Below, one piece after another: positions 9,594-36,843 of a stretch of 36,843 nt of DNA (positions are counted from its first letter, which is position 1; each line of letters opens with the position of its first letter). A program made the position numbers and the translations under genes. The notes beneath the pieces were generated by a model. The model searched no databases, was not told the DNA's origin, and worked only from the letters and a program-made list of their open reading frames with translations. The stretch lies in the NCBI GenBank assembly GCA_018830245.1, contig JAHJSW010000001.1, forward strand, positions 1 to 36,843, written 5' to 3'. Source of the stretch: Nanobdellota archaeon (GTDB lineage Archaea > Nanobdellota > Nanobdellia > Pacearchaeales > GW2011-AR1).

Positions 9594-12500
9594 ATGAAAT
9601 CAAAAAATAGAAAAATAGCGATTGCAGAAATTTTAATATTAGTACTGGGAATTTTTTCATTTTCCTACTTATTATATCAGACTATGCCTCTTATTTCTGC
9701 ACAAGATATTTTAGGATGTTGTACTGAAACAAATACTGGAGCAAAATGCCAAGACCTAGTGCTGGGAAGTGATGAATGTAAAGAAGCTCTGCTTCCAAGT
9801 CAGTGCAAAGACACTTCAAATTGTAAACTTGGGTGTTGTATTGATGAAGAAGAGGGTTTGTGTTCTGAAAAATCTCCAAAAGACCTATGTACTTCTGATG
9901 GAGGAACTTGGAAAGACAATGAAGTATGCAATATTATTGAGTGCCAAAAAGGATGTTGTGTTTTAGGAACTCAGACAAATTATGTAACAGATGCTAGATG
10001 TGGGAAACTCGCAGGATTTTACGGGATTGAAAAAGATTTTCGACAACAAATAAAAACAGAATTAGAATGTGTTTTGCTGGCAGAATCCCAAGAACACGGA
10101 GCGTGTATATTGGGAGAAGATGTTTGCAAGTTTACTACTCAAGGAGATTGTGTAAATAAAGAAGGAGAGTTTCACAAAGATGTTTTATGTTCTAATCCTT
10201 ATCTAGAAACTTCTTGTGAACAGCAAGTTTCTGTAGGCTGTGTTGAAGGATTAGATGAAATTTACTGGTTTGACTCGTGTGGAAATAGAGAGAATATTTA
10301 TAATGCAGATAAAAATGTTTCTTGGAATAATGGAGAGTTATTACCAAAAGATCAGAGCTGCAATCCTACTTCTGCAAATATTGAGTCAGAAACTTGTGGG
10401 AACTGCAATTATTTTTTAGGGAGTAAGTGTGGTAGTTCTGAAGAGATAAAAATAAAGGATGGAAATTTTATTTGCCAGGATTTAAATTGTTATAATACTT
10501 ATGATGGAAGTGACAGAGTAAATGGAGAGAGCTGGTGCATATATGATGCTTCTATTGGAACAGGAACAGATGTTGTTGGAAGTCGACACTGGAAACATAT
10601 GTGTATTGACGGAAAAGAAGTTGTAGAACCGTGCGCAGATTATAGGCAGGAAATCTGTGCAGAAGAAATAGTAGAAATTTCAACTGATAAAAAAGTTAGT
10701 ATGTCTAATTGCATTATCAATGAATGGAGATCTTGTTTTTCATATAATGAACTATCAGCAGATAAAATGGTCAAGAAGTGCTCGGAAAATCAGCACTGTT
10801 ATTTAAAATCATTATGGCACCCTGGTGGAAAAGTTGCGCAAGGCCCAATTCAGACATGTCTTCCAGAATATCCTCCAGGACTTATATTTTGGGGAGATCA
10901 GAGTTCTGCTTCACAAATTTGCAGTCCAGCCTCACAAAATTTAGATGTTACTGCAGTTAAAGAATGTGGATTTTTAGGAATAAGTGAGGAGTGGGTATAT
11001 GTTGCAAATGATGTTGCAAGAACAGAAACCTGGTCCCAGATAATGAATAAGTGGTGCACTAATCTTGGAGATTGTGGTGCTTATGTTAATATTGAAGGAG
11101 AGGTTACAACAGGAGGATATAGCACAAGTGGGGTAGCTCGTGCTCTTTCTGCAAGTTACTTATCCCAGTTAGCAAGTTTTAATATTCCAAACCCTGATGC
11201 AAAAGGAAAAATTTCTGGAATAGTTCCTATTGAAGAAGAGGAAGATACTAGCTGGACTACTCTTATAGGATATGGTGTATTAGGTCAATGGCTTTATGAA
11301 GGAATTGCAGGATTAGATGTTTTTGCAGGTGCGGTAATGAATCCAATGGGGACCTGGAGTGAAGCAGGATTTCTTAATTTTATGACTCAACCATATTTTG
11401 CTGCGCCAGCAGCAATTGTTGCATCATATTTTGCAGGACAGATGATTGGACAGTTAATGGGGCTTGATGAGGCATCTGCTCAGCAAGTTGGAATTGCGGG
11501 TGCTATTGGGGCTATTGGCTCTGTTGCTTATACTTCTTTTTTTGGAGGTGGTTTTAACGCAGTAACTTTTGGAACAACATTTATGTGGGGAATTATTGTT
11601 GCTGTTGTTGTAGCAATCTGGATGCAATTAAAGGGATGTGGAGAACAGGCAAAATGGAAAGCAGGATTTACCTGCAGAGCGTGGGATCCTCCGTCAGGAG
11701 GAAAGGATTGTGAAAAATGTAATGAAGGTGAAAAAGATTCTGATGGAAATTTATTTCACGAATGCTCAGAATATAGATGTAAAAGTTTAGGTGCTGCTTG
11801 TGAATTTATTAATGCTGGAACAACAGACCCTAAATGTATCTGGAGTAGGCCAAATGATGCGGCTTCTCCAGTAATCAGTCCGTGGCAAGAAAGTTTATCA
11901 AAAGGGTATAATTTTGAGACAAGTGCTTCTTGCCCGTCAACATGCTCAAATAAAGTAATTAGAAATAATGAATCTGGTTGTTTAGAAGCATATAAATCAA
12001 TTACTTTTGGGATACAAACAGATGAATATGCTAAATGTAAATTTGATACTTCAAATAAACAATATGAAGATATGGTTAATTCATTTACAGGATTATATAC
12101 AGAAAATCATTCAACAGTAATTATGTCCCCAGGAATAATCACTCTTGAAGCAGAATTAGAAAGATTAAGAAAGCAATTTAAAAATGAGACAGGAGAGCCA
12201 CTTGGACAAGAGTATATTGATAATATTATAAATAAATCAATTGATGGAACATTAAGATTATATATAAAATGTAAAGATGTAAATGGAAATACAAATTCTG
12301 CTCCTTTGTTAGTTGAGATGTGCTTAGACCCTGAACCAGACACAACTCCTCCACATGTTGTTTCAATTAATCCAAATAATAATCGAAAAATAGCATACGG
12401 GTTAACAGAACAAGATATTTTAATGTATGTAAATGAACCTGCAGAGTGCAAATATTCTTCTACAGATAAAATTTATGATGAAATGGAAAATTCTTTTGAC

Positions 12501-13220
12501 TGCCAGACAGAATTAAGTGAAGGAACAATAAAAGGATGGTTATGTGCAACTAAACTTACAAATCTGCAAAATGAAAATTCTTACTATATCAGATGCAAAG
12601 ATAAACCATATAGTGTGGAACAAGAGAGAAATGCAAATTTAGAGAGTTATAATTATGTAATTTCTAAATCATTGAGTGAACTTTCAATTAATTCGATTTC
12701 TCCAGATGGAGATGTTGGAGGGGGATTTGAACCAATTTCAGTTAGTCTTGAAGTAAAAACCTCTGGAGGAGCAAATAATGGCGTCTCTATTTGTTATTAT
12801 AAATGGGGGAATAACTGGATTTCTTTTATGGAGACAGATTCAAAATCCCATAAACAACAATTAAGTTTAGGAAAAGGAAGTTATTCAGTAGAAATAAAAT
12901 GTGTTGATGAAGCAGAGAATGAAGCTTATGGAGAAACTAGTTTTCATTTAAACTTAGATACTTCTCCACCAAGTGTAGCGAGAGCATATAAAGAAGGGAA
13001 TAAATTAATTGTAATCACAGATGAAAAAGCAGAATGTTTTTATCATCCTAATAAATGTTATTTTGATATAGAAAATGCAACTTTAATGACCACTGTATTT
13101 TCAAGAGAGCATAGTGCAGAATGGATTACTGGACAAGTGTATCATATAAAATGCATAGATATTTGGGGGAATAAAGCTGACGGATGCAGTATGAAAATAT
13201 TTCCGAATTCATTAGTTTAA
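9594..13220 (+). CDS. Large Cys-rich surface/membrane protein, 1208 aa
   Basis: KIAIAEILILVLGIF N-terminus; repeated LGCC modules; central Gly/Ala-rich hydrophobic segments; Ig-like C-terminal half. Confidence 0.75.
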   Translation: MKSKNRKIAIAEILILVLGIFSFSYLLYQTMPLISAQDILGCCTETNTGAKCQDLVLGSDECKEALLPSQCKDTSNCKLGCCIDEEEGLCSEKSPKDLCTSDGGTWKDNEVCNIIECQKGCCVLGTQTNYVTDARCGKLAGFYGIEKDFRQQIKTELECVLLAESQEHGACILGEDVCKFTTQGDCVNKEGEFHKDVLCSNPYLETSCEQQVSVGCVEGLDEIYWFDSCGNRENIYNADKNVSWNNGELLPKDQSCNPTSANIESETCGNCNYFLGSKCGSSEEIKIKDGNFICQDLNCYNTYDGSDRVNGESWCIYDASIGTGTDVVGSRHWKHMCIDGKEVVEPCADYRQEICAEEIVEISTDKKVSMSNCIINEWRSCFSYNELSADKMVKKCSENQHCYLKSLWHPGGKVAQGPIQTCLPEYPPGLIFWGDQSSASQICSPASQNLDVTAVKECGFLGISEEWVYVANDVARTETWSQIMNKWCTNLGDCGAYVNIEGEVTTGGYSTSGVARALSASYLSQLASFNIPNPDAKGKISGIVPIEEEEDTSWTTLIGYGVLGQWLYEGIAGLDVFAGAVMNPMGTWSEAGFLNFMTQPYFAAPAAIVASYFAGQMIGQLMGLDEASAQQVGIAGAIGAIGSVAYTSFFGGGFNAVTFGTTFMWGIIVAVVVAIWMQLKGCGEQAKWKAGFTCRAWDPPSGGKDCEKCNEGEKDSDGNLFHECSEYRCKSLGAACEFINAGTTDPKCIWSRPNDAASPVISPWQESLSKGYNFETSASCPSTCSNKVIRNNESGCLEAYKSITFGIQTDEYAKCKFDTSNKQYEDMVNSFTGLYTENHSTVIMSPGIITLEAELERLRKQFKNETGEPLGQEYIDNIINKSIDGTLRLYIKCKDVNGNTNSAPLLVEMCLDPEPDTTPPHVVSINPNNNRKIAYGLTEQDILMYVNEPAECKYSSTDKIYDEMENSFDCQTELSEGTIKGWLCATKLTNLQNENSYYIRCKDKPYSVEQERNANLESYNYVISKSLSELSINSISPDGDVGGGFEPISVSLEVKTSGGANNGVSICYYKWGNNWISFMETDSKSHKQQLSLGKGSYSVEIKCVDEAENEAYGETSFHLNLDTSPPSVARAYKEGNKLIVITDEKAECFYHPNKCYFDIENATLMTTVFSREHSAEWITGQVYHIKCIDIWGNKADGCSMKIFPNSLV

Positions 13221-13265
13221 CAAAAATTTTTAAACAGAAATACCGTATAAAAAAAAGGAGACAAT

Positions 13266-14069
13266 ATGAAAAAAAGAGGTGAGGACGCGAATAATAGAAA
13301 AGGTCAGATTACAATTTTTATAATTCTTGCAATAGTTGTTGTAGTTCTTGGAATTGTTTTATACTTTTTTTATCCTAAAATAATCTCAAACTTTGGATTT
13401 GAATCAAATCCCTCATTATATATGGAGTCCTGCATTAAAGAAGACCTAACAAATACTGTTGAAAAAATATCTTCTCAGGGAGGAAGTTTAGAACCAGAAC
13501 ACTATATTATGTATCAAGGAAACAAAATAGAATATCTTTGTTATACTGAAGAATATTATACTACTTGCATAATGCAACAACCAATGTTAAAACAGCATAT
13601 TGAAAAAGAAGTTCAAGAAGCAATTAAAAGTAAGGTAAGTGAATGCTTTGATCTTTTAAAAGAAGATTATGAGAAAAAAGGATATTCTGTGAATTTAAAA
13701 AAAGGAGAGATTAGTATTGAACTCCTCCCTCAAAGAATTATTGCTTTGTTTAATTCTACATTGACTATTAAAAAAGAAGAATCTCAAAAATATGATTCAA
13801 TTAAAATTGTTTTAAATAATAATCTTTATGAGTTAGTGAGTATTGCCAATAGTATCTTAAACTGGGAGGCTCGTTACGGAGATTCTGAAACAACAACATA
13901 TATGGATTATTATCATGATCTAAAAGTTGAGAAAAAGAAACAATCAGAAGGCTCAACAATTTATATTTTAACAGATAGAACAAGTGAAAATAAATTTCAG
14001 TTTGCATCAAGGAGTGTTGCATGGCCTCCAGGATATGGAATTGATAAAGTTTATATTGAAAATGCGTAA
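13266..14069 (+). CDS. Pilin-like membrane protein, paralog 2
   Basis: NRKGQITIFIILAIVVVVLGIVLYFF; shares ISSQGGxxE, YLCY, QPxLxQHIxxE pattern with 8832..9593. Confidence 0.7.
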   Translation: MKKRGEDANNRKGQITIFIILAIVVVVLGIVLYFFYPKIISNFGFESNPSLYMESCIKEDLTNTVEKISSQGGSLEPEHYIMYQGNKIEYLCYTEEYYTTCIMQQPMLKQHIEKEVQEAIKSKVSECFDLLKEDYEKKGYSVNLKKGEISIELLPQRIIALFNSTLTIKKEESQKYDSIKIVLNNNLYELVSIANSILNWEARYGDSETTTYMDYYHDLKVEKKKQSEGSTIYILTDRTSENKFQFASRSVAWPPGYGIDKVYIENA

Positions 14070-15918
14070 AAAAAATATATTTATTTTAGGACTTGGAATT
14101 TTCTTACTAGGAGTTCTGCCATTTATTTCAGCAATAGAAATTTCTTATTGTTGTGAAAAAACAGTTGATGGTGCGTGGTGCCAGAATGCTCCTGAAGAAA
14201 GATGCGATGATGATTTTAGAAAAGTCCCTGCTTCTTGTGATGCTACTTCTTATTGTAAACTTGGATGTTGTTATGACAGTCAGGAAGGAACTTGCATGGA
14301 AAATACTCCTCAAAAAGTTTGTGATGGCCCTGAAGAAAACGACCCTCACGGAATTTGGTCTGGAGATAGTACTGAATGTGATATTCCCCAGTGTAGTTTA
14401 GGGTGTTGTTTAATTGGAGATCAGGCAGCGTTTGTAACACAAACTAGATGTAAAAGACTCTCTTCATTATATGGATTAGAAATTAATTTTAGAACAGATC
14501 TTTCTAATGAGGTTTTGTGCATCCAAAGTGCGACATCAGAAGTAAAAGGGGCTTGTGTTTTTGAGAAAGAGTATGAAAAAACTTGTAAATTTATCTCTAA
14601 AAGAGAATGTTTAGAAATGAGTTCTGGTAATGAGACAGGAGAGTTTCACGAAGGTTATTTATGTTCTGCTGAAAATCTAGGAACAAATTGCGGACCTACA
14701 GAAAAAACAGTTTGTGTTGAAGAGTATGATGAAGTTTATTTTGTTGATAGTTGTGGGAACTTAGCAAATATTTATGATGCGTCTAAAATAAAAAATAAAA
14801 ATTACTGGTCAAAAATTGTAGGAAAAGCAGAAAGTTGTGGATTTGGTCAGTCAAATGCAGATTCTTCTAGTTGTGGAAATTGTGATTATTATCTTGGAAG
14901 CAGTTGTAAGGCATATAAAGTTGGGCAGGATAAAGTTCGTCCAAGTTATGGGAATAATCTCTGCAGGGACTTAGGTTGTAAGTATGATGGAGAAGACTAT
15001 GAACACGGAGAGACTTGGTGTATTTATGAAAATCAGGTAGGAAAAGGAAGAGATGTTGTTGGAAGCAGACATATAAGAGCGATTTGTTATAATGGGGATG
15101 TTTTAACAGAACCTTGTGCAGATTTCAGACAGGAAATTTGTCTTCAAGAAGAAATAGAAACTACAAAAGGAGAGTTTTTTAGCTCAGCTTGTGTTGTTAA
15201 TCGATGGCAAGATTGTGTTGCTCAGACAAATAGAAAAAATTGTGAAAATATAGATAAAAGAGAGTGCACATGGCTAACTGACGGGGGTTTAATGTCGCAC
15301 CAGTCATATGAAGCAGAGGAAGGAGATTTAACAGATTCTAGTTCAGATAGTAGTCCAAGTTCATCAAGCAGTACTACAACTGCAGATACAACTACTAATT
15401 CAAATTCCACAATTACTGGAGGAGTGATTACTGGCGCATTTATTGGAGGGATTTTTGGAGGAAGTGATGATTCTGAGGAAGAGTATAGTGATGCTCCAAC
15501 AATAATTAAAGGTGCTTGTGTTCCAAGTTATCCTCCTGGTTTAGAATTTTGGTCAGATGGAGAGACCAGGCAGGTTTGTTCTCAGGCAGATTTTGTCTGT
15601 TATGTTGAATTTGCAAAAAAAGGCTATTTCTTTTCACATGAAGCAGAGTGTGTAAAAAATTGTGAGTGCTTGTCTAATTCATGGGTAGCAAAACAAAATA
15701 GAATTTGTAATGGTCTTGGGGATTGTGGTGCTTATGTTAATATAGAAAAGAAATTCACTTCAGGAGGAATGAGTGTAAAGAAAGGAACTGTTCCAAGTAA
15801 CTTTAGTGAAGGATTAATAGAAGGATTATACAAGGATTTATTTGTAGGAATCTTTGAGGATGTTTTTGAAGGAGTATTTGATATTGGAGATATTTTTGGA
15901 GGAGGTCTTGGGTTTTAG
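14062..15918 (+). CDS. Cys-rich surface protein, paralog of the N-terminal half of 9594..13220
   Basis: Start moved from 13984 to 14062 (MRKKNIFILGLGIFLLG signal); shared VVGSRH..ICYxGxxxxEPCADFRQEIC and GLGDCGAYVNIE. Confidence 0.75.
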   Translation: MRKKNIFILGLGIFLLGVLPFISAIEISYCCEKTVDGAWCQNAPEERCDDDFRKVPASCDATSYCKLGCCYDSQEGTCMENTPQKVCDGPEENDPHGIWSGDSTECDIPQCSLGCCLIGDQAAFVTQTRCKRLSSLYGLEINFRTDLSNEVLCIQSATSEVKGACVFEKEYEKTCKFISKRECLEMSSGNETGEFHEGYLCSAENLGTNCGPTEKTVCVEEYDEVYFVDSCGNLANIYDASKIKNKNYWSKIVGKAESCGFGQSNADSSSCGNCDYYLGSSCKAYKVGQDKVRPSYGNNLCRDLGCKYDGEDYEHGETWCIYENQVGKGRDVVGSRHIRAICYNGDVLTEPCADFRQEICLQEEIETTKGEFFSSACVVNRWQDCVAQTNRKNCENIDKRECTWLTDGGLMSHQSYEAEEGDLTDSSSDSSPSSSSSTTTADTTTNSNSTITGGVITGAFIGGIFGGSDDSEEEYSDAPTIIKGACVPSYPPGLEFWSDGETRQVCSQADFVCYVEFAKKGYFFSHEAECVKNCECLSNSWVAKQNRICNGLGDCGAYVNIEKKFTSGGMSVKKGTVPSNFSEGLIEGLYKDLFVGIFEDVFEGVFDIGDIFGGGLGF

Positions 15919-15975
15919 TGATACTACTTCATAGTAACATTTAAATATGATGGAAACAACAAAAAAATAAGGAAA

Positions 15976-16557
15976 ATGGGATTAAGACAAAAACTGATAG
16001 CAGGGGCAGGAGCATGTACATTAGCTGTAACTACGACTTTGTTGTCTGGATGCGGAAGTATGACCCAAAGAGAGAGAACTGAAATACTAGGACTCGCAGC
16101 ATTTGGACTTCCAGGATATGCTCTTGCAAGGTTATCTAATCAAGAGCAGGAAGAACAGCAAAGAAAACCTCAAAAACAAGAAGAACGTGCTTTTTTTACA
16201 TATGGGTTTGATAAAGACTTAAATGGAGATGGGATTTTAAGTCCAGATGAATTTTTTGAGATGGGGAAAAAAATATTTGACTTACGTACTGAAATGATGA
16301 GTGTAGGATTTTTTAAAGAAGATTATGAAGGACCTGTTCTTTTTAGAGCATTCACAAAATCAGGAAAAGAGATTGGAAGAAACATAAGAATAAATTCTAA
16401 AGGAAGATGCTTAGTTACATATACTGGTCCAGGAACAGAAGGGGATGATTTTATGGAGAAGATTAAAAAACAAGGTCCAGGAAAATACGATGTTACAGCT
16501 ACTATTCTAAAGAATGGAGAAACATATAAATTAGAATTAGAGATAACTAACAAATAA
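15976..16557 (+). CDS. Lipoprotein with EF-hand-like calcium-binding loop
   Basis: Lipobox-like TTTLLSGC; DKDLNGDGILSPDEF EF-hand loop. Confidence 0.7.
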   Translation: MGLRQKLIAGAGACTLAVTTTLLSGCGSMTQRERTEILGLAAFGLPGYALARLSNQEQEEQQRKPQKQEERAFFTYGFDKDLNGDGILSPDEFFEMGKKIFDLRTEMMSVGFFKEDYEGPVLFRAFTKSGKEIGRNIRINSKGRCLVTYTGPGTEGDDFMEKIKKQGPGKYDVTATILKNGETYKLELEITNK

Positions 16558-16560
16558 AAA

Positions 16561-18576
16561 ATGTACTTAAAAAAGAGGTTTGATAAAAGAGGTAAGATTG
16601 CAATTTTAGAGATATTTATTCTCTTGCTTGGAATTATCGCAATTTCTTATGCAATTGGAAGTGAGATTAAACTTATAAAAGCAAGAGCTAAGGTCCCCCC
16701 AGCTACAGAAAATCCTACTAAGAACCCTCCACTAGGAGATCTCTCTGGAGGAGCAGTTCAAAAAGGAGCGGGAGGAGCAGAAGCTGCTACAGGAACAGCA
16801 ACCACAATTATGAATGGGTTTTTATGGGCAACAATAATTATCACTGCGCTAAAAATGTTTGGGATTACTCTCGGAGATAGCAAGTATACTACAAAAGCAT
16901 TAAGAGCAGGGGCGTTCTGGGGAGTAATGTCATATTATATTACCGACGCTATTGACCCAACATGGGCTGCTGAAAAAGGATGGTGGGATGTTTCTCAAGG
17001 CGCATGGGTTGGAATAGGTGTTGGACTGCTTATTTTTGAAGCAACATATAAAAAAGTAAAAGTTATTCCTGTTACATTTAACTGTCTTCCGTGGGAAGCG
17101 CCGACAGGAGGAGGAGATTGTGAGAAATGCAACGAAAGAGAAGTATGCAGTGAGTATATGTGTAAAAGTTTGGGACAGGCATGTGAATTAATTAACAAAG
17201 GAACAGAAGAAGAAGCATGTGCATGGGTAAATCCTCATGATGTAACACCTCCAATAATTGAGACCTGGGAAGATGCATTACTTCCTGATTACAAATATTC
17301 TCCTGACAATACAATTTCTCCACCTGATAGAGGAGTAAAAGTAATAAACACTAAATCAACAACAGACTGTGCAAAAGCATTCACCCCACTTTCCTTTGGA
17401 ATCACTCTTGATGAACCAGGGAAATGTAAAATAGATTATATAAGAAAAGGCAGTTTTGATGAGATGGCTTATTTATTTGGAGAGAGTGGCACACTAAAAT
17501 ACGAACATACTCAGACAATGAGTCTTCCTGGACCAGAAGCATTTAAAGAAGAAAATATCACACTTCAAAATGATGGAGAGTATGAATTATATGTAAGATG
17601 CCAGGATGCAAATGGAAATTATAATACTGCGAATTTTGTATTTAGATATTGTGTAGAAAAAGGGCCTGATACAACCCCTCCTCTGATTGTTAACACAAAT
17701 TTACTGAACAATATGCCTATTGCATATAATCAAACTTCTCTTGAGATTGAAGTTTATGTAAATGAACCTGCAGAGTGTAAATGGAGTCATAGAGACCAAG
17801 ATTATGATAAGATGGAAGAACAGATGGTATGTTCTTCTAGTATATTTGAAATGAATGCGCAAATGCTTTATGAATGCTCAACAAAACTTACTGGAATAGT
17901 AAGTAAAGAAAAAAATTCATTTTACTTTAGATGCAAAGATAAACCAAGAGCGACAAGTGATAGAAATACTAACACAGAATCATATGTTTTTAATGTGCTT
18001 GGAACACAACCACTAGTAATAAGCACTGTAGAACCAAATAATACACTTGTAAAAGATTCTACAGAGTCGGTAAAAGTAACTATTAAAGTTGAAACAGCTG
18101 CAGGGCATGAAGATGGAAAATCAATCTGCTATTATAGTGAGACAGATGATGAGGAAGATTATATTATGTTTTATAAAACTCAGTCACATGTACACGCCCA
18201 AGAATTATGGTTATCTGAAGGAAGGTATGATTATTTTATAAAATGCGTTGATCTTGGAGGGAATTCAGATAAAAGAAGCATAAATTTTGATGTTGAATCA
18301 GATATCAGTGCTCCTTCTGTAGTAAGAGTTTATCATGAAGAATCATACTTAAAATTAATTACAAATGAAAAAGCAGAGTGTGTTTATGATACAATGAATT
18401 GTAATTATCAGTTTGATGACGGGACATCAATCTCAGTAATAAATGAGGTTAATCACTATACTGACTGGGATACTAAAAAAGAATTTTTTATAAAATGCCA
18501 AGACGAATATAGAAACCAACCTCTTCCAAACGAATGCAGTATAATTGTAAGACCATTAGAACTTGGGTTTCGATAG
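16561..18576 (+). CDS. Membrane/surface protein, paralog of the C-terminal half of 9594..13220
   Basis: RGKIAILEIFILLLGI N-terminus; shared CxxWxxPxGGxDCEKCNE, YVNEPAECK, YYxRCKDKP segments. Confidence 0.75.
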   Translation: MYLKKRFDKRGKIAILEIFILLLGIIAISYAIGSEIKLIKARAKVPPATENPTKNPPLGDLSGGAVQKGAGGAEAATGTATTIMNGFLWATIIITALKMFGITLGDSKYTTKALRAGAFWGVMSYYITDAIDPTWAAEKGWWDVSQGAWVGIGVGLLIFEATYKKVKVIPVTFNCLPWEAPTGGGDCEKCNEREVCSEYMCKSLGQACELINKGTEEEACAWVNPHDVTPPIIETWEDALLPDYKYSPDNTISPPDRGVKVINTKSTTDCAKAFTPLSFGITLDEPGKCKIDYIRKGSFDEMAYLFGESGTLKYEHTQTMSLPGPEAFKEENITLQNDGEYELYVRCQDANGNYNTANFVFRYCVEKGPDTTPPLIVNTNLLNNMPIAYNQTSLEIEVYVNEPAECKWSHRDQDYDKMEEQMVCSSSIFEMNAQMLYECSTKLTGIVSKEKNSFYFRCKDKPRATSDRNTNTESYVFNVLGTQPLVISTVEPNNTLVKDSTESVKVTIKVETAAGHEDGKSICYYSETDDEEDYIMFYKTQSHVHAQELWLSEGRYDYFIKCVDLGGNSDKRSINFDVESDISAPSVVRVYHEESYLKLITNEKAECVYDTMNCNYQFDDGTSISVINEVNHYTDWDTKKEFFIKCQDEYRNQPLPNECSIIVRPLELGFR

Positions 18577-22471: not shown

Positions 22472-22510
22472 AATTATCATACAAATGAAAGGAGGTTGAA
22501 AAGAAAAGAA

Positions 22511-24910
22511 ATGAAATTTAGTTTTAAAAAAATATCTGCTATAGCAACTAGTGCATTAATGTTAGGTATGAGTGCTGGTGTCGCTGTTGCAGCAAGCTAT
22601 CCAGAACCTTTTATTTCTGGAGGAAGTGCAAATGTAGCTATTGTTTATGGTACAGGGGCAGGGGTTTCTGCTCTAGATCTTGTTCAAGCCGGAAACATAC
22701 AGTCTAATTTGCAATCTAATCTTGGTTCAGCAGGAACTACTGTAACTAGTGGTTCTGTCACTGGAGGAGATAGTGTTAAATTCGAAAAATCTTCAACAAA
22801 ATTCCAATTAGGAAAGGGGATTACAGATATTATCTCAACTTCTATTACTGATGATAGTCCTGGAGAAGGACTTAAAGTTCTTTTAGCTGATGGGAAATAT
22901 GTGGATGATGATAATGACGAAAAAGACTATACTCAAAAGATTGATATGGCTAACTTAACATTAGGTATGTTTGATGATGATGACTATAAACCAGACACCC
23001 CTACAATTGGCTTTAGAGTTACTAGCGCATCTCAGGTATTAAATTATACCTTAGATTTTACTGATGAACCAGAGTGGGCAGACTTAACATCAACAAATAT
23101 TGAAATTATGGGAAAAACATATTTCATATTGAGTGTTACAGCAAACACAACAATAAATCTTCTTGACTCAGCAAATACTGCAACAGTATCAGAAGGTGAA
23201 ACCGCAAGTGTTACTGTAGAAGGAACAACCTATGAAGTTTCTATCCAGTATATTAGTTCTACAGAAGTAAAACTAACAATTAATGGAGAGAATACAAATA
23301 GTCTGCAAGAGTCGCATACTCAAAAATTGAAGAATGGGGCTTATGTTGGTATCAAAGACATTATGCATGATTCAAAAACAGGAAGTGTGAGTAGTGTAGA
23401 GTTTAGTATTGGAACAGGAAAATTAATTCTTAAGGATGCTACTGATGTTGAGATTAACGATGCATCTGTGTCTAATATGAAAACATATATTACTACAACA
23501 AGTTCGTCTACTCCTACAATTAGCAAAATTGTAATTGAATGGAAAGCAGATGATGAATTATTTATAGCGCCAGACAGTGAGGTTACAATGCCAGGGTTTG
23601 GAGCAGTAAAATTGTCCTTTAGTGGGATGTTATACCCTAAAGAAGAAGTAATTACTGTTAAAGGAGGAAGTACTACTTATGCCGTACTTGAAAATTTCCC
23701 TATGAAAGATGGTTCAGTAGATATAAACATTCTTTACGGAAATAGTAGTGATTGGACAGGAATTGGAAAAGATTCTACTCATCTACTAAGAACAGATGTT
23801 GATTCAGACATAACATTTGACAAAGACACTGATGAATATTTTGTAGCTTCTTTTAATGATGGAAGTAATGCAGAATCTTATTTAATGAGGGCTACTGATT
23901 TCGGGCAGATTGGAACTACTACTGCAAACAGAACTGATATTCAGTATCGGAAAGATGGTGTTTGGACAACAATAAAAGACGATGCTAAATTAGCAGATGT
24001 TGTCACAATCGGGAATGTCCAATTAACTATTGGAGCAATTAAGAGATCTGCAGAAAATACTGTTGTCCTTACAGCAGGAACAAGTTGTAACTTTCATACA
24101 GCTTATTCAAAAGAAGGCTTAGAAGTTTTCTTACCATATGCTGCTGATGCTGGACCAGCTACTGCTAGACCAGGTGCGCTTAACACAACTAATGTAACTC
24201 ATGGAGGAACTGCTACCACTTTTGACTTAATCTTTAGTGAAGAAGACAAAAATGGAAATATTGGTGATGGAGGAAACATTACTGCAGTTCTTGGATGGAA
24301 TTCTGCCACAACTAAAGAAGCTTATGTAAGCGATGTTGGAAACGAATCAGTTACATTTGCTGAAGATGGAGACAGCACTAAAAAATGGCTAAGTTATAAA
24401 TATGGTGCACTTGCTTCTAAATTGTTGTGGGATAAAACAGGAGACCAGTATGAACTCCAGATAACATATCATGGAGATGAATCATATGGAGAAGTTTACT
24501 TAACTGCTCCTCTTGCAACTGTTTCAGCAGGAACAACTTCAACAACTACTGCAACTCAACTTGGAGATGTATTAGTAAAAGATAGTGAAGTTAGCTCTGT
24601 AAGTTCAAAGAACTTAATTATTGTTGGTGGAAGCTGTATTAATTCAGCTGCTGCTAAAGTATTAGGTGGAACTTATTGTGGTGCAGGATTCACAGAAGCA
24701 ACTGGTGTCGGAGCAGGAGAATTCCTAATCCAGAGTGTAGGCGATGCTTATTCAACTGGAAAAATCGCATTAGTTGTTGCTGGTTATGAAGCTGCAGACA
24801 CTGTAAATGCTGCTACATATCTAAGAACTCAAACAGTTGACACAACTGCAGGTAAGAAATACAAAGGTACTTCATCTACTAGTGCAGAACTTGTTACAAC
24901 AACAGTGTAA
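22511..24910 (+). CDS. S-layer protein
   Basis: Signal peptide MKFSFKKISAIATSALMLGMSAGVAVAA then SGGSANVAIVYGTGAGVSALDLVQAGNI, as in methanogen/DPANN S-layer proteins; TTG at 22496 abuts the SD so ATG 22511 is preferred. Confidence 0.85.
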   Translation: MKFSFKKISAIATSALMLGMSAGVAVAASYPEPFISGGSANVAIVYGTGAGVSALDLVQAGNIQSNLQSNLGSAGTTVTSGSVTGGDSVKFEKSSTKFQLGKGITDIISTSITDDSPGEGLKVLLADGKYVDDDNDEKDYTQKIDMANLTLGMFDDDDYKPDTPTIGFRVTSASQVLNYTLDFTDEPEWADLTSTNIEIMGKTYFILSVTANTTINLLDSANTATVSEGETASVTVEGTTYEVSIQYISSTEVKLTINGENTNSLQESHTQKLKNGAYVGIKDIMHDSKTGSVSSVEFSIGTGKLILKDATDVEINDASVSNMKTYITTTSSSTPTISKIVIEWKADDELFIAPDSEVTMPGFGAVKLSFSGMLYPKEEVITVKGGSTTYAVLENFPMKDGSVDINILYGNSSDWTGIGKDSTHLLRTDVDSDITFDKDTDEYFVASFNDGSNAESYLMRATDFGQIGTTTANRTDIQYRKDGVWTTIKDDAKLADVVTIGNVQLTIGAIKRSAENTVVLTAGTSCNFHTAYSKEGLEVFLPYAADAGPATARPGALNTTNVTHGGTATTFDLIFSEEDKNGNIGDGGNITAVLGWNSATTKEAYVSDVGNESVTFAEDGDSTKKWLSYKYGALASKLLWDKTGDQYELQITYHGDESYGEVYLTAPLATVSAGTTSTTTATQLGDVLVKDSEVSSVSSKNLIIVGGSCINSAAAKVLGGTYCGAGFTEATGVGAGEFLIQSVGDAYSTGKIALVVAGYEAADTVNAATYLRTQTVDTTAGKKYKGTSSTSAELVTTTV

Positions 24911-24952: not shown

Positions 24953-25056
24953 TAACTGATGGCTAGAGCTGTGCAAAAGCAAAGTTTTATATTAGGAAAA
25001 AAATTGTTTTTAAAATGAACCTCTGCGGACTGAAGTCCGCAGTTTCCAAATCATGT

Positions 25057-25497
25057 TCAACCAATGAGAGAGGGACCATGGTGTTCCTCTTGATGTAAAA
25101 CATAGGAGATAGTAAAGTCCAAATCAGTGAAACCAACTGAGGCTATGAACTTTCCTTTAGACCAAAGATGTCGTCGAGGATATCTTAATTTAGCTTTAGG
25201 GTGAAACCTAAAGAAAAGGTATGAGGAAGCTCCCTTAATAAGTTGGACAAGTTTGCTTGGATTAACACTAACCTTGGTTTTAACAACCATATGGACATGC
25301 TCAGGCATAACATTGATTGTTATTATCTTGATATTATGTTTGGTACAAGTTTGTCTTATACAAGCTTGGATTAAATTTTTATATTTAATCTTACTAAACA
25401 TCTTATACCTATACTTAGTACAAAACTGGATGTGCCAAAAAGCAATACCAACCGAGTGATTGTTTCGATCATAAAGTTTCATAAAACTTATGCTCAT
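25057..25497 (-). CDS. tnpA: IS200/IS605 family transposase TnpA (Y1 HUH)
   Basis: PEHVHMVV HUH motif, ISYVLHQ catalytic Tyr region; start at 25497 has GGAG at 6-nt spacing. Confidence 0.85.
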   Translation of the reverse strand: MSISFMKLYDRNNHSVGIAFWHIQFCTKYRYKMFSKIKYKNLIQACIRQTCTKHNIKIITINVMPEHVHMVVKTKVSVNPSKLVQLIKGASSYLFFRFHPKAKLRYPRRHLWSKGKFIASVGFTDLDFTISYVLHQEEHHGPSLIG

Positions 25498-25544
25498 GTT
25501 CAACTCCAGAATAAAGCTCACGCTAAATTCGTAATTTAGTTCAT

Positions 25545-25565
25545 AGAGCCTAGTATCTAGGCTCT
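25545..25565 (-). promoter_or_regulatory. tnpA leader hairpin (IS-A)
   Basis: AGAGCCTAG-ATA-CTAGGCTCT on the minus strand, 9-bp perfect stem. Confidence 0.6.
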
Positions 25566-25658
25566 TCATAATCATGAATCAAGAAATAAATAAATTTAGG
25601 AGAAGGAAGGGATGCAATTCCCCTACTAGCTAAAGCTAGTAGTATCCTTGCAACTTAA

Positions 25659-26219
25659 ATGAAAAAAATTACTGAAAAAAGAAAAAATGAGAAAAGAAAT
25701 CAGCTGATTCTAGGACTCATCTTAATAAGTGTTATGTTTTTGAGTGTTTTGGGATATGCTTTAAGGGAAGAAGAGGAGAGTGAGGAAGAAAAAGTTATTT
25801 ACAATAATTTTGAATTTGAAAAAAATAATGACTTCTGGTACTTAAGTGTAGAAAATTTTAATTTTGTTTTTAAGAATAATCCTTTTCAAATAGAAGAAAT
25901 TCCAGCTCAATTAAAAGGGCTGAATAATTACAAAGGAAAACCATTATATATTTATTCAGAAGAGGACGAAGCGAGTTCAGAAATCTATATAAATCTAAAC
26001 CAATTGATACAAAGAATGCAATTTGCTTGCCTAGAAAGTTTAGAAAATTGTGAGGAAAATTCTCCTACAAAAACCTGTGAAGATAATTTTATTATAATAA
26101 GAGTTAATAATAATACTCGAATTGTTCAGGAAGAAAATTGTGTATTTATACAAGGGAAAAAAGAAGAGATTGTAGGATTAGTTGATGAATTTTTATTTAA
26201 AATAATTGGAGTGAGATAA
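25659..26219 (+). CDS. Membrane-anchored hypothetical protein, paralog of the next gene
   Basis: N-terminal TM, extracytoplasmic domain, Cys pattern. Confidence 0.65.
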   Translation: MKKITEKRKNEKRNQLILGLILISVMFLSVLGYALREEEESEEEKVIYNNFEFEKNNDFWYLSVENFNFVFKNNPFQIEEIPAQLKGLNNYKGKPLYIYSEEDEASSEIYINLNQLIQRMQFACLESLENCEENSPTKTCEDNFIIIRVNNNTRIVQEENCVFIQGKKEEIVGLVDEFLFKIIGVR

Positions 26220-35681: not shown

Positions 35682-35957
35682 TCAACAAAGTCCTCTCCTT
35701 AATTCGCGTTTTTTTTCCTCTTGAGGAAACCTTTTTTCTCTTGGTTCAAAATAACGAGGAGGAAAAGATTTTTGAATTGCTGGTTCTATAGAAGGAAGAA
35801 CCCGCACTCCTGAACCCTCATTTACTCCTCTCACGTATCCCCATGTGAAAAGCCCTGTTGCTAAAACAAGAAAAGATATTCCGATTGCAAACATCTCAAG
35901 CGCTGCATGAAGAACCCCATTGTAATCTTTTTTCATCTTAGAATAATTTTCTTTCAT
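35682..35957 (-). CDS. Small membrane protein
   Basis: ATG at 35957 (MKENYSK) preferred; the MDV extension lies in IS-B DNA. Confidence 0.6.
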   Translation of the reverse strand: MKENYSKMKKDYNGVLHAALEMFAIGISFLVLATGLFTWGYVRGVNEGSGVRVLPSIEPAIQKSFPPRYFEPREKRFPQEEKKRELRRGLC

Positions 35958-36044
35958 TACATCCACGGCGAGGATACCACTGCTTTAAAGCAGGGAGGAA
36001 TCGCCGTCCTCAAAATTTAATTCTTCCAAATGATTAGAAACAGA

Positions 36045-36063
36045 AGGTCTGGATACTAGACCT
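36045..36063 (+). promoter_or_regulatory. tnpA leader hairpin (IS-B)
   Basis: AGGTCTGG-ATA-CTAGACCT. Confidence 0.6.
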
Positions 36064-36122
36064 CCTGAATAAAACACAAAGTTAGCATGAGCTTTGTCTT
36101 CTGCTGACTTAGGAGATAAAAA

Positions 36123-36530
36123 ATGGATTTGAACTCGCGGAAGCACAGTTTCGGGCAAAATGCCTTCCACTTTGTCTGGAAAATTAAATATGCTAAAGAC
36201 CCTTTCAAATTTTACGGGTTGAAGATGGATTGCGAGTTTTTCTTGAGGCAAGTTGCTTACAGACGAGGATTCAAAATTTACGAACTCCACGTCGCTGTTG
36301 ACCATGTCCACTTGTTTGTTGAACTTCCTCCAACTGTGAGTGTTAGCATGGCTCTTCAGTTGTTTAAGGGCTACTCTGCCTTTAAACTTTTCAAAAAACA
36401 TCCTTGGTTGAGAAACCACTTTAGAAATGGACACTTCTGGAGCCCTGGAAAATTCTTCCGTAGCGTCGGCAACACAACCACCGAAGCTGTCCAGCACTAC
36501 ATTACTTCTTCTCAACCGTGGGTTTCTTAG
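36123..36530 (+). CDS. tnpA: IS200/IS605 family transposase TnpA (Y1 HUH)
   Basis: VDHVHLFVELPP HUH motif; AVQHYITSSQ Tyr region. Confidence 0.88.
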   Translation: MDLNSRKHSFGQNAFHFVWKIKYAKDPFKFYGLKMDCEFFLRQVAYRRGFKIYELHVAVDHVHLFVELPPTVSVSMALQLFKGYSAFKLFKKHPWLRNHFRNGHFWSPGKFFRSVGNTTTEAVQHYITSSQPWVS

Positions 36531-36751
36531 TTTTAACATTTTATTTGTTGATACCTCGCGCTTTAGCGCGGGGTTATTCATTTTTCTTCTCCTTTCAATT
36601 TTATTTTAACTAGTGATTAAGTAAGATTATTTACCTTTATTAATATAAAAACATTATGTTCTTTAAGGATATATGCCCTCCCCCTTTATTTTTTTATATA
36701 ATAAACAAGGTATAACGCTTTGTATGACAGTTACAGAGTATGAGTTAATTT

Positions 36752-36843
36752 TTAACATGGAGGCTCTGTTTGGTCAACTTCTCCAGTACAAAATACAGAT
36801 GGGTCTAAACCACAATCCTTTGCTAAAACATTAGAATCACACG
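36752..36843 (-). CDS. C-terminal end of a Cys-containing protein (partial)
   Basis: Minus frame reads CDSNVLAKDCGLDPSVFCTGEVDQTEPPC* to the window edge. Confidence 0.45.
   Translation of the reverse strand, partial: CDSNVLAKDCGLDPSVFCTGEVDQTEPPC

What the first reader, a model, noticed from the sequence alone, without database searches (positions are those of the whole stretch)
35950..36600. IS-B shows the same start-codon insertion and separates a Shine-Dalgarno from its gene
Removing 35958..36581 joins 'GAAAGGAGAAGAAAA' to 'ATGAAAGAAAATTATTCT' on the minus strand, restoring GGAG 7 nt before the ATG of 35682..35957. This independently supports the boundaries. Two divergent elements with the same placement and orientation suggest TTCAT-specific elements tend to land on ATGAA starts and rewire 5' ends.
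Basis: partly seen in the sequence, partly recalled or inferred. Interest (0 to 1): 0.75.

Follow-up and report, generated by a model that had tools for sequence, protein, structure and literature searches.

The report
Jumping element that lands on start codons

Summary
IS-B is a 624-bp IS200-group element (35958..36581): one Y1/HUH TnpA gene, subterminal hairpins, no target duplication. Its ends are fixed by 39 left and about 45 right ends of relatives. All 39 left junctions in the same archaeal family follow YCAT, and 28/39 make that CAT the ATG of an ORF of at least 60 aa (uL5, uL10, uL15, uL22, eL31, MetAP, TruB/Cbf5, NeuC). Ten of 13 junctions outside the family repeat this. The IS608 pairing rule explains the target: guide GATA pairs with TCAT, and one guide change (GGTA) goes with CCAT. 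The full target is YCAT|TTT, the complement of AAA|ATGR. Of such sites, 16% are starts genome-wide and 68% of those outside genes are, so target sequence plus loss of intragenic insertions accounts for the bias.

The Shine-Dalgarno part is not supported. Such motifs are not enriched before starts in this genome, where a TATA box about 28 nt before the ATG (leaderless type) is. The right flank is doubtful too: another contig puts ftsZ at an identical IS-B right end, and relatives have ftsZ just upstream of secE, so the native site is probably ftsZ-TAAA|ATG. "Rewiring" is untested.

The parts
35958..36581 (+). IS-B, whole IS200-group element
   Evidence: Ends fixed by alignment to relatives
35954..35957 (+). 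Target/left cleavage site TCAT, kept in the left flank; complement of the ATGA start of gene X
   Evidence: YCAT in 39/39 left flanks
35965..36007 (+). Left-end nested hairpin: outer stem 35965-35971/36001-36007, inner hairpin 35977-35995
   Evidence: DNA fold z -3.8; covariation in 14 sequences
35973..35976 (+). Left guide GATA, in the internal loop
   Evidence: Fits the IS608 pairing rule with TCAT; 37 TCAT/GATAC, 1 CCAT/GGTAC, 1 CCAT/GATAC
36123..36530 (+). tnpA, Y1 transposase, 135 aa, HVH at 61-63, Y126
   Evidence: PF01797 1.2e-26; PDB kin 2xm3, 2a6m
36550..36553 (+). Right guide GATA
   Evidence: Same pairing with the right cleavage site TCAT; pattern
36553..36574 (+). Right-end hairpin
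   Evidence: DNA fold z -4.6
36577..36581 (+). Right cleavage site TTCAT, carried by the element
   Evidence: Present also in a copy whose target is CCAT
35682..35957 (-). Gene X, 91 aa, orphan small protein upstream of secE; its ATG is the insertion site
   Evidence: no relatives found
36589..36592 (-).
36604..36609 (-). TTAAAA starting at -28 from the junction in the assembled right flank, the position of leaderless TATA boxes in this lineage
25015..25658 (-). IS-A, second distant IS200-type element, inserted at the ATG of 25659..26219

Best explanation
IS-B is an IS200-group element that transposes as single-stranded DNA. Shown by sequence: it inserts immediately 3' of YCAT, nearly always followed by TTT, on the template strand of a gene, so the target is the complement of AAA|ATGA or AAA|ATGG, the start-codon context of these AT-rich archaea. 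Inferred from the IS608 rule: GATA guides beside both hairpins pair with TCAT at the left flank, at the right end and in the target. Inferred: insertions inside genes are lost by selection; since 68% of the remaining AAATGR sites are start codons, most survivors sit at starts, largely at stop-start junctions inside operons. The right end carries TTCAT like the target, so an ATGA is rebuilt on both sides: the downstream gene keeps its ATG, and the upstream gene keeps its stop even where the two overlap as ATGA. What drives the downstream gene afterwards is not known.
For: Y1 transposase and PDB kin. Fixed ends in 39 left and about 45 right ends. YCAT in 39/39; +1 T 42/43, +2 T 41/43, +3 T 36/43. 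ORF of at least 60 aa from that ATG in 28/39, with 11 Pfam domains starting at profile position 1 to 5; 10/13 outside the family. Unoccupied uL5 and uL15 orthologues start at or next to the same ATG. Context-matched null: 15.6% of all AAATGR sites and 68% of those outside genes are starts; 28/39 fits the latter, p = 0.38. Guide and target change together in one copy. Left-end structure conserved by compensatory changes. Right flanks: 22/43 have the upstream gene ending at or near the ATG, and about 8 more have an ATGA overlap.
Against: One copy has CCAT with a GATA guide (mismatch). Three copies in one genome (G021) are not at starts. The gene caller for the null was a simple ORF caller, and short ORFs of 60 to 80 aa count as starts. 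+1 to +3 TTT was read mostly on right flanks whose left partner is on another contig. No biochemistry, reads or RNA data.
Confidence: 0.78

Rival explanations
1. Active start-codon or start-site targeting: the transposase prefers single-stranded DNA exposed at transcription or translation starts, beyond the YCAT|TTT sequence.
For: Starts are strongly over-represented against all YCAT sites (9e-27); in leaderless genes the ATG is the transcription start, and IS-A and the assembled IS-B site have a TATA box at -29/-28.
Against: Only 6/45 right flanks have a TATA box at -28, against about 60% of leader genes; most sites are operon-internal; the context-matched null for sites outside genes explains 28/39 (p = 0.38).
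Confidence: 0.12
2. One reading: IS-B separated a working Shine-Dalgarno from gene X and now decides that gene's 5' end.
For: GGAG lies 7 nt before the ATG once the element is removed from the assembled contig.
Against: No SD enrichment before starts in this genome; a C38 right end with ftsZ is the better syntenic partner of gene X; no RNA data.
Confidence: 0.15
3. The window contig is correct across IS-B (36582..36843 is the native upstream flank of gene X) and ftsZ has another, unassembled downstream gene.
For: The contig passes through a complete element; the right flank is unique in the genome and carries promoter-like TTAAAA at -28.
Against: Three right ends identical over 90-96 nt in this genome are a place where assemblers misjoin; ftsZ lies upstream of secE in 20/29 relatives.
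Confidence: 0.3

Closest known systems
IS608 (ISHp608), IS200/IS605 family, Helicobacter pylori
   Same: Y1/HUH TnpA, subterminal hairpins, insertion 3' of a tetranucleotide kept in the left flank, four-base guide 5' of each hairpin; the same pairing positions (g1:c2, g2:c1, g4:c4) fit TCAT/GATA (PMC5934647).
   Different: IS608 target is TTAC, its left and right cleavage sites differ (TTAC, TCAA), and it carries tnpB; here both sites are TCAT, there is no tnpB, and an outer stem encloses the left guide.
ISDra2, IS200/IS605 family, Deinococcus radiodurans
   Same: Single-strand Y1 transposition 3' of a fixed target, with a strong preference at +1 (TTGAT|G there, YCAT|T here) (PMC5934647, PMC2806898); homologous TnpA (2xm3, E 1.7e-13).
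   Different: Different target, carries tnpB; its target is not a start-codon context.
IS200 group (tnpA-only elements, e.g. Salmonella IS200)
   Same: One transposase gene, small size, hairpin ends.
   Different: From general knowledge, not compared here. No report of start-codon insertion by IS200/IS605 elements was found in the paper searches.

Membership tests
IS200/IS605 family | Single-domain HUH/Y1 transposase with catalytic Tyr | tested here: met
   PF01797 1.2e-26; HVH at 61-63 and Y126; aligned to solved Y1 transposases
IS200/IS605 family | Subterminal hairpins instead of terminal inverted repeats | tested here: met
   Both ends fold, z -3.8 and -4.6; covariation in the left end
IS200/IS605 family | Insertion 3' of a fixed short target, no target duplication | tested here: met
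   YCAT in 39/39 left flanks; the right-end TTCAT is element-borne (a CCAT-target copy ends TTCAT; G075 copies end TTTAT with TCAT targets)
IS200/IS605 family | Guide sequences pairing with the cleavage sites | tested here: met
   GATA/TCAT fits the IS608 positions; one compensatory change, one exception. Sequence test only
IS200/IS605 family | Transposition through a single-stranded circular intermediate | not testable with these tools
   Needs biochemistry
IS200 group | tnpA only, no tnpB | tested here: met
   624 bp with one conserved ORF; the 198-aa antisense ORF is cut to 12-16 aa in 5 of 9 copies

The most novel reading that the evidence does not exclude
A start-codon-docking element: besides the YCAT|TTT target, the left end itself supports expression of the gene it sits against (an outward promoter, or UAA-UG stop-start coupling from the invariant TACAT end), which is why insertions at the ATG of ribosomal protein genes survive. 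This would be a safe-site strategy of an IS200 lineage across the archaeal class.
Probability: 0.2. Interest if true: 0.75.

Novelty: new variant of a known kind. Interest (0 to 1): 0.55.

Why it matters
It gives a natural case where a four-base guide in a transposon, by matching the complement of the start codon, decides which sites survive in a compact genome. It predicts that insertion positions of IS200/IS605 elements can be read from their guides. It also raises a directly testable question: how essential genes, such as those for ribosomal proteins, are expressed with 0.6 kb of transposon inserted at their first base in archaea whose promoters are mostly of the leaderless type.

Tried and rejected
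Promoter-bubble targeting: rejected as the main cause, since only 6/45 right flanks have a TATA box at -28. Outward TATA box in the left hairpin loop (TTTAAA at -32): present in some copies, absent in G108, G075 and IS-A, and a few nt off the host position, so not claimed. Conserved antisense protein from the right-end ATG (35985..36581): rejected, 12-16 aa in 5 of 9 copies. Orthologous empty site of gene X: none found. TACAT-type pattern hits without YCAT and hairpin (L293, L295, L297, L300, L305) were dropped by eye. A regex search for the ends of more distant Y1 elements gave mostly spurious candidates and was used only for IS-A kin and L005. Papers: nothing found on start-codon insertion by IS200/IS605 elements.

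Full report
What is there. IS-B (35958..36581, 624 bp) holds one conserved gene, a 135-aa transposase on the + strand (36123..36530) that matches Pfam Y1_Tnp at 1.2e-26 and the solved transposases of ISDra2, IS608 and Sulfolobus elements. Both ends fold as single strands. In 14 distinct left ends of relatives the two nested stems keep 96.9% of their pairs, with 9 of 14 pairs changed on both sides in at least one sequence. This is an IS200-group member of the IS200/IS605 family. IS-A (25015..25658, minus strand) is a second, distant one (31% identical protein).

Boundaries. Alignment of IS-B to its relatives ends at positions 1 and 624 in nearly every copy with an intact end. A left-end pattern found 39 copies in 14 of 181 genomes of the same archaeal family, all starting TACAT after YCAT. 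A right-end pattern found 46 matches in 16 genomes, with the element ending at TTCAT in nearly all and TTTAT in G075. Sequence at the site alone leaves a 6-nt ambiguity (TTCATT at both ends). The right-end TTCAT belongs to the element: a copy inserted after CCAT still ends TTCAT, so it is not a target duplication.

Start codons. In 28 of the 39 left junctions the CAT is the ATG of an ORF of at least 60 aa reading away from the element. Pfam places 11 of these proteins with a domain starting at profile position 1 to 5: ABC transporters, UDP-GlcNAc 2-epimerase, methionine aminopeptidase-like M24 peptidase, TruB/Cbf5, uL10, ERCC4 nuclease, HD, uL22, eL31 and uL5; a uL15-type protein also matches. 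For uL5 and uL15, same-genus genomes without the element have the gene starting at or next to the same ATG. Outside the family, 13 further copies in other families of the class all follow TCAT, and 10 of them start an ORF of 95 aa or more. IS-A kin: 3 of 6 (IS-A itself, a 244-aa gene, a transketolase-like gene).

Why. The four bases before each hairpin are GATA. By the pairing reported for IS608 (A+16:T-3 and A+17:T-4; PMC5934647), GATA pairs with TCAT. One copy has GGTA with CCAT, the expected compensatory change; one has GATA with CCAT, an exception. Right flanks add +1 T 42/43, +2 T 41/43, +3 T 36/43. The target is therefore YCAT|TTT, which on the gene strand reads AAA|ATGR. In 15 stretches from these genomes (about 265 kb) with a simple gene caller, 5.6% of ATGR and 15.6% of AAATGR sites are gene starts; of those outside genes, 45.5% and 68% are. 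The observed 28/39 is far above the all-sites values (7e-15 for AAATGR) and matches the non-genic AAATGR value (p = 0.38). So the guide-defined target plus loss of intragenic insertions is enough; the selection step is inferred. Many right flanks show the upstream gene's stop at or near the junction (22/43), and about 8 more show an ATGA overlap in which the element's own TTCAT or TTTAT end supplies the stop.

The Shine-Dalgarno claim. The joined flanks as assembled do read GGAG-7 nt-ATG. But SD-like motifs before starts are no more frequent than in a control window for leader genes of this genome (11% against 11%), while a TATA-like box starts at -29..-27 in about 118 of 196 leader genes of this and related genomes, the mark of leaderless promoters. 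The joined flanks also carry TTAAAA at -28, and IS-A's carry TTTATA at -29. The flank itself is doubtful: the genome has three IS-B right ends identical over 90-96 nt (C21, C38, C31); at C38 the flank is the 3' end of ftsZ (...TTTTTTGAGTAAA|); and ftsZ lies just upstream of secE, with 0 to 2 small ORFs between, in 20 of 29 relatives, the place gene X occupies here. I think it more likely than not that the native site is ftsZ-TAAA|ATGAAAG and that the window's join to 36582..36843 is an assembly artefact. The right flank is not found elsewhere in the genome, and no orthologue of gene X was found, so this stays open.

Host. Named relatives are Candidatus Pacearchaeota and Nanoarchaeota metagenome assemblies.

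Not shown. Single-strand transposition, guide function, expression of the downstream gene and the selection step are inferred. No paper reporting start-codon insertion by IS200/IS605 elements was found in the open-access library; most subscription journals are not in it.

Noticed in passing
window 25015..25658: IS-A: own boundaries worked out; full-length transposase found once in the genome; inserted at the ATG of 25659..26219, with a TTTATA at -29 in the joined flanks.
   Followed up: partly
G000 contigs C7 (L063/L279), C31 (L273), C38 (L272): Further partial IS-B copies at contig ends in the same genome: a left end at the start of a UDP-GlcNAc 2-epimerase gene (C7), right ends after a gene end resembling a PIG-L deacetylase (C31, not tested) and after ftsZ (C38); contig breaks and possible misjoins at IS-B.
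   Followed up: partly
window and L161-L174: Sharp TATA-like peak starting at -29..-27 from ATG in leader genes and no SD enrichment in G000: the lineage looks predominantly leaderless. SD-like motifs are commoner at operon-internal starts in the related genomes (40% against 17%).
   Followed up: partly
window 35985..36581 (-): 198-aa antisense ORF through IS-B from the right-end ATG; long in 4 of 9 copies, 12-16 aa in the rest.
   Followed up: yes
window 9594..18576: Large cysteine-rich secreted-type proteins (9594..13220, 13984..15918, 16561..18576) sharing segments of 72-84% DNA identity.
   Followed up: no
window 22496..24910: S-layer protein (PF05124) directly upstream of IS-A.
   Followed up: no
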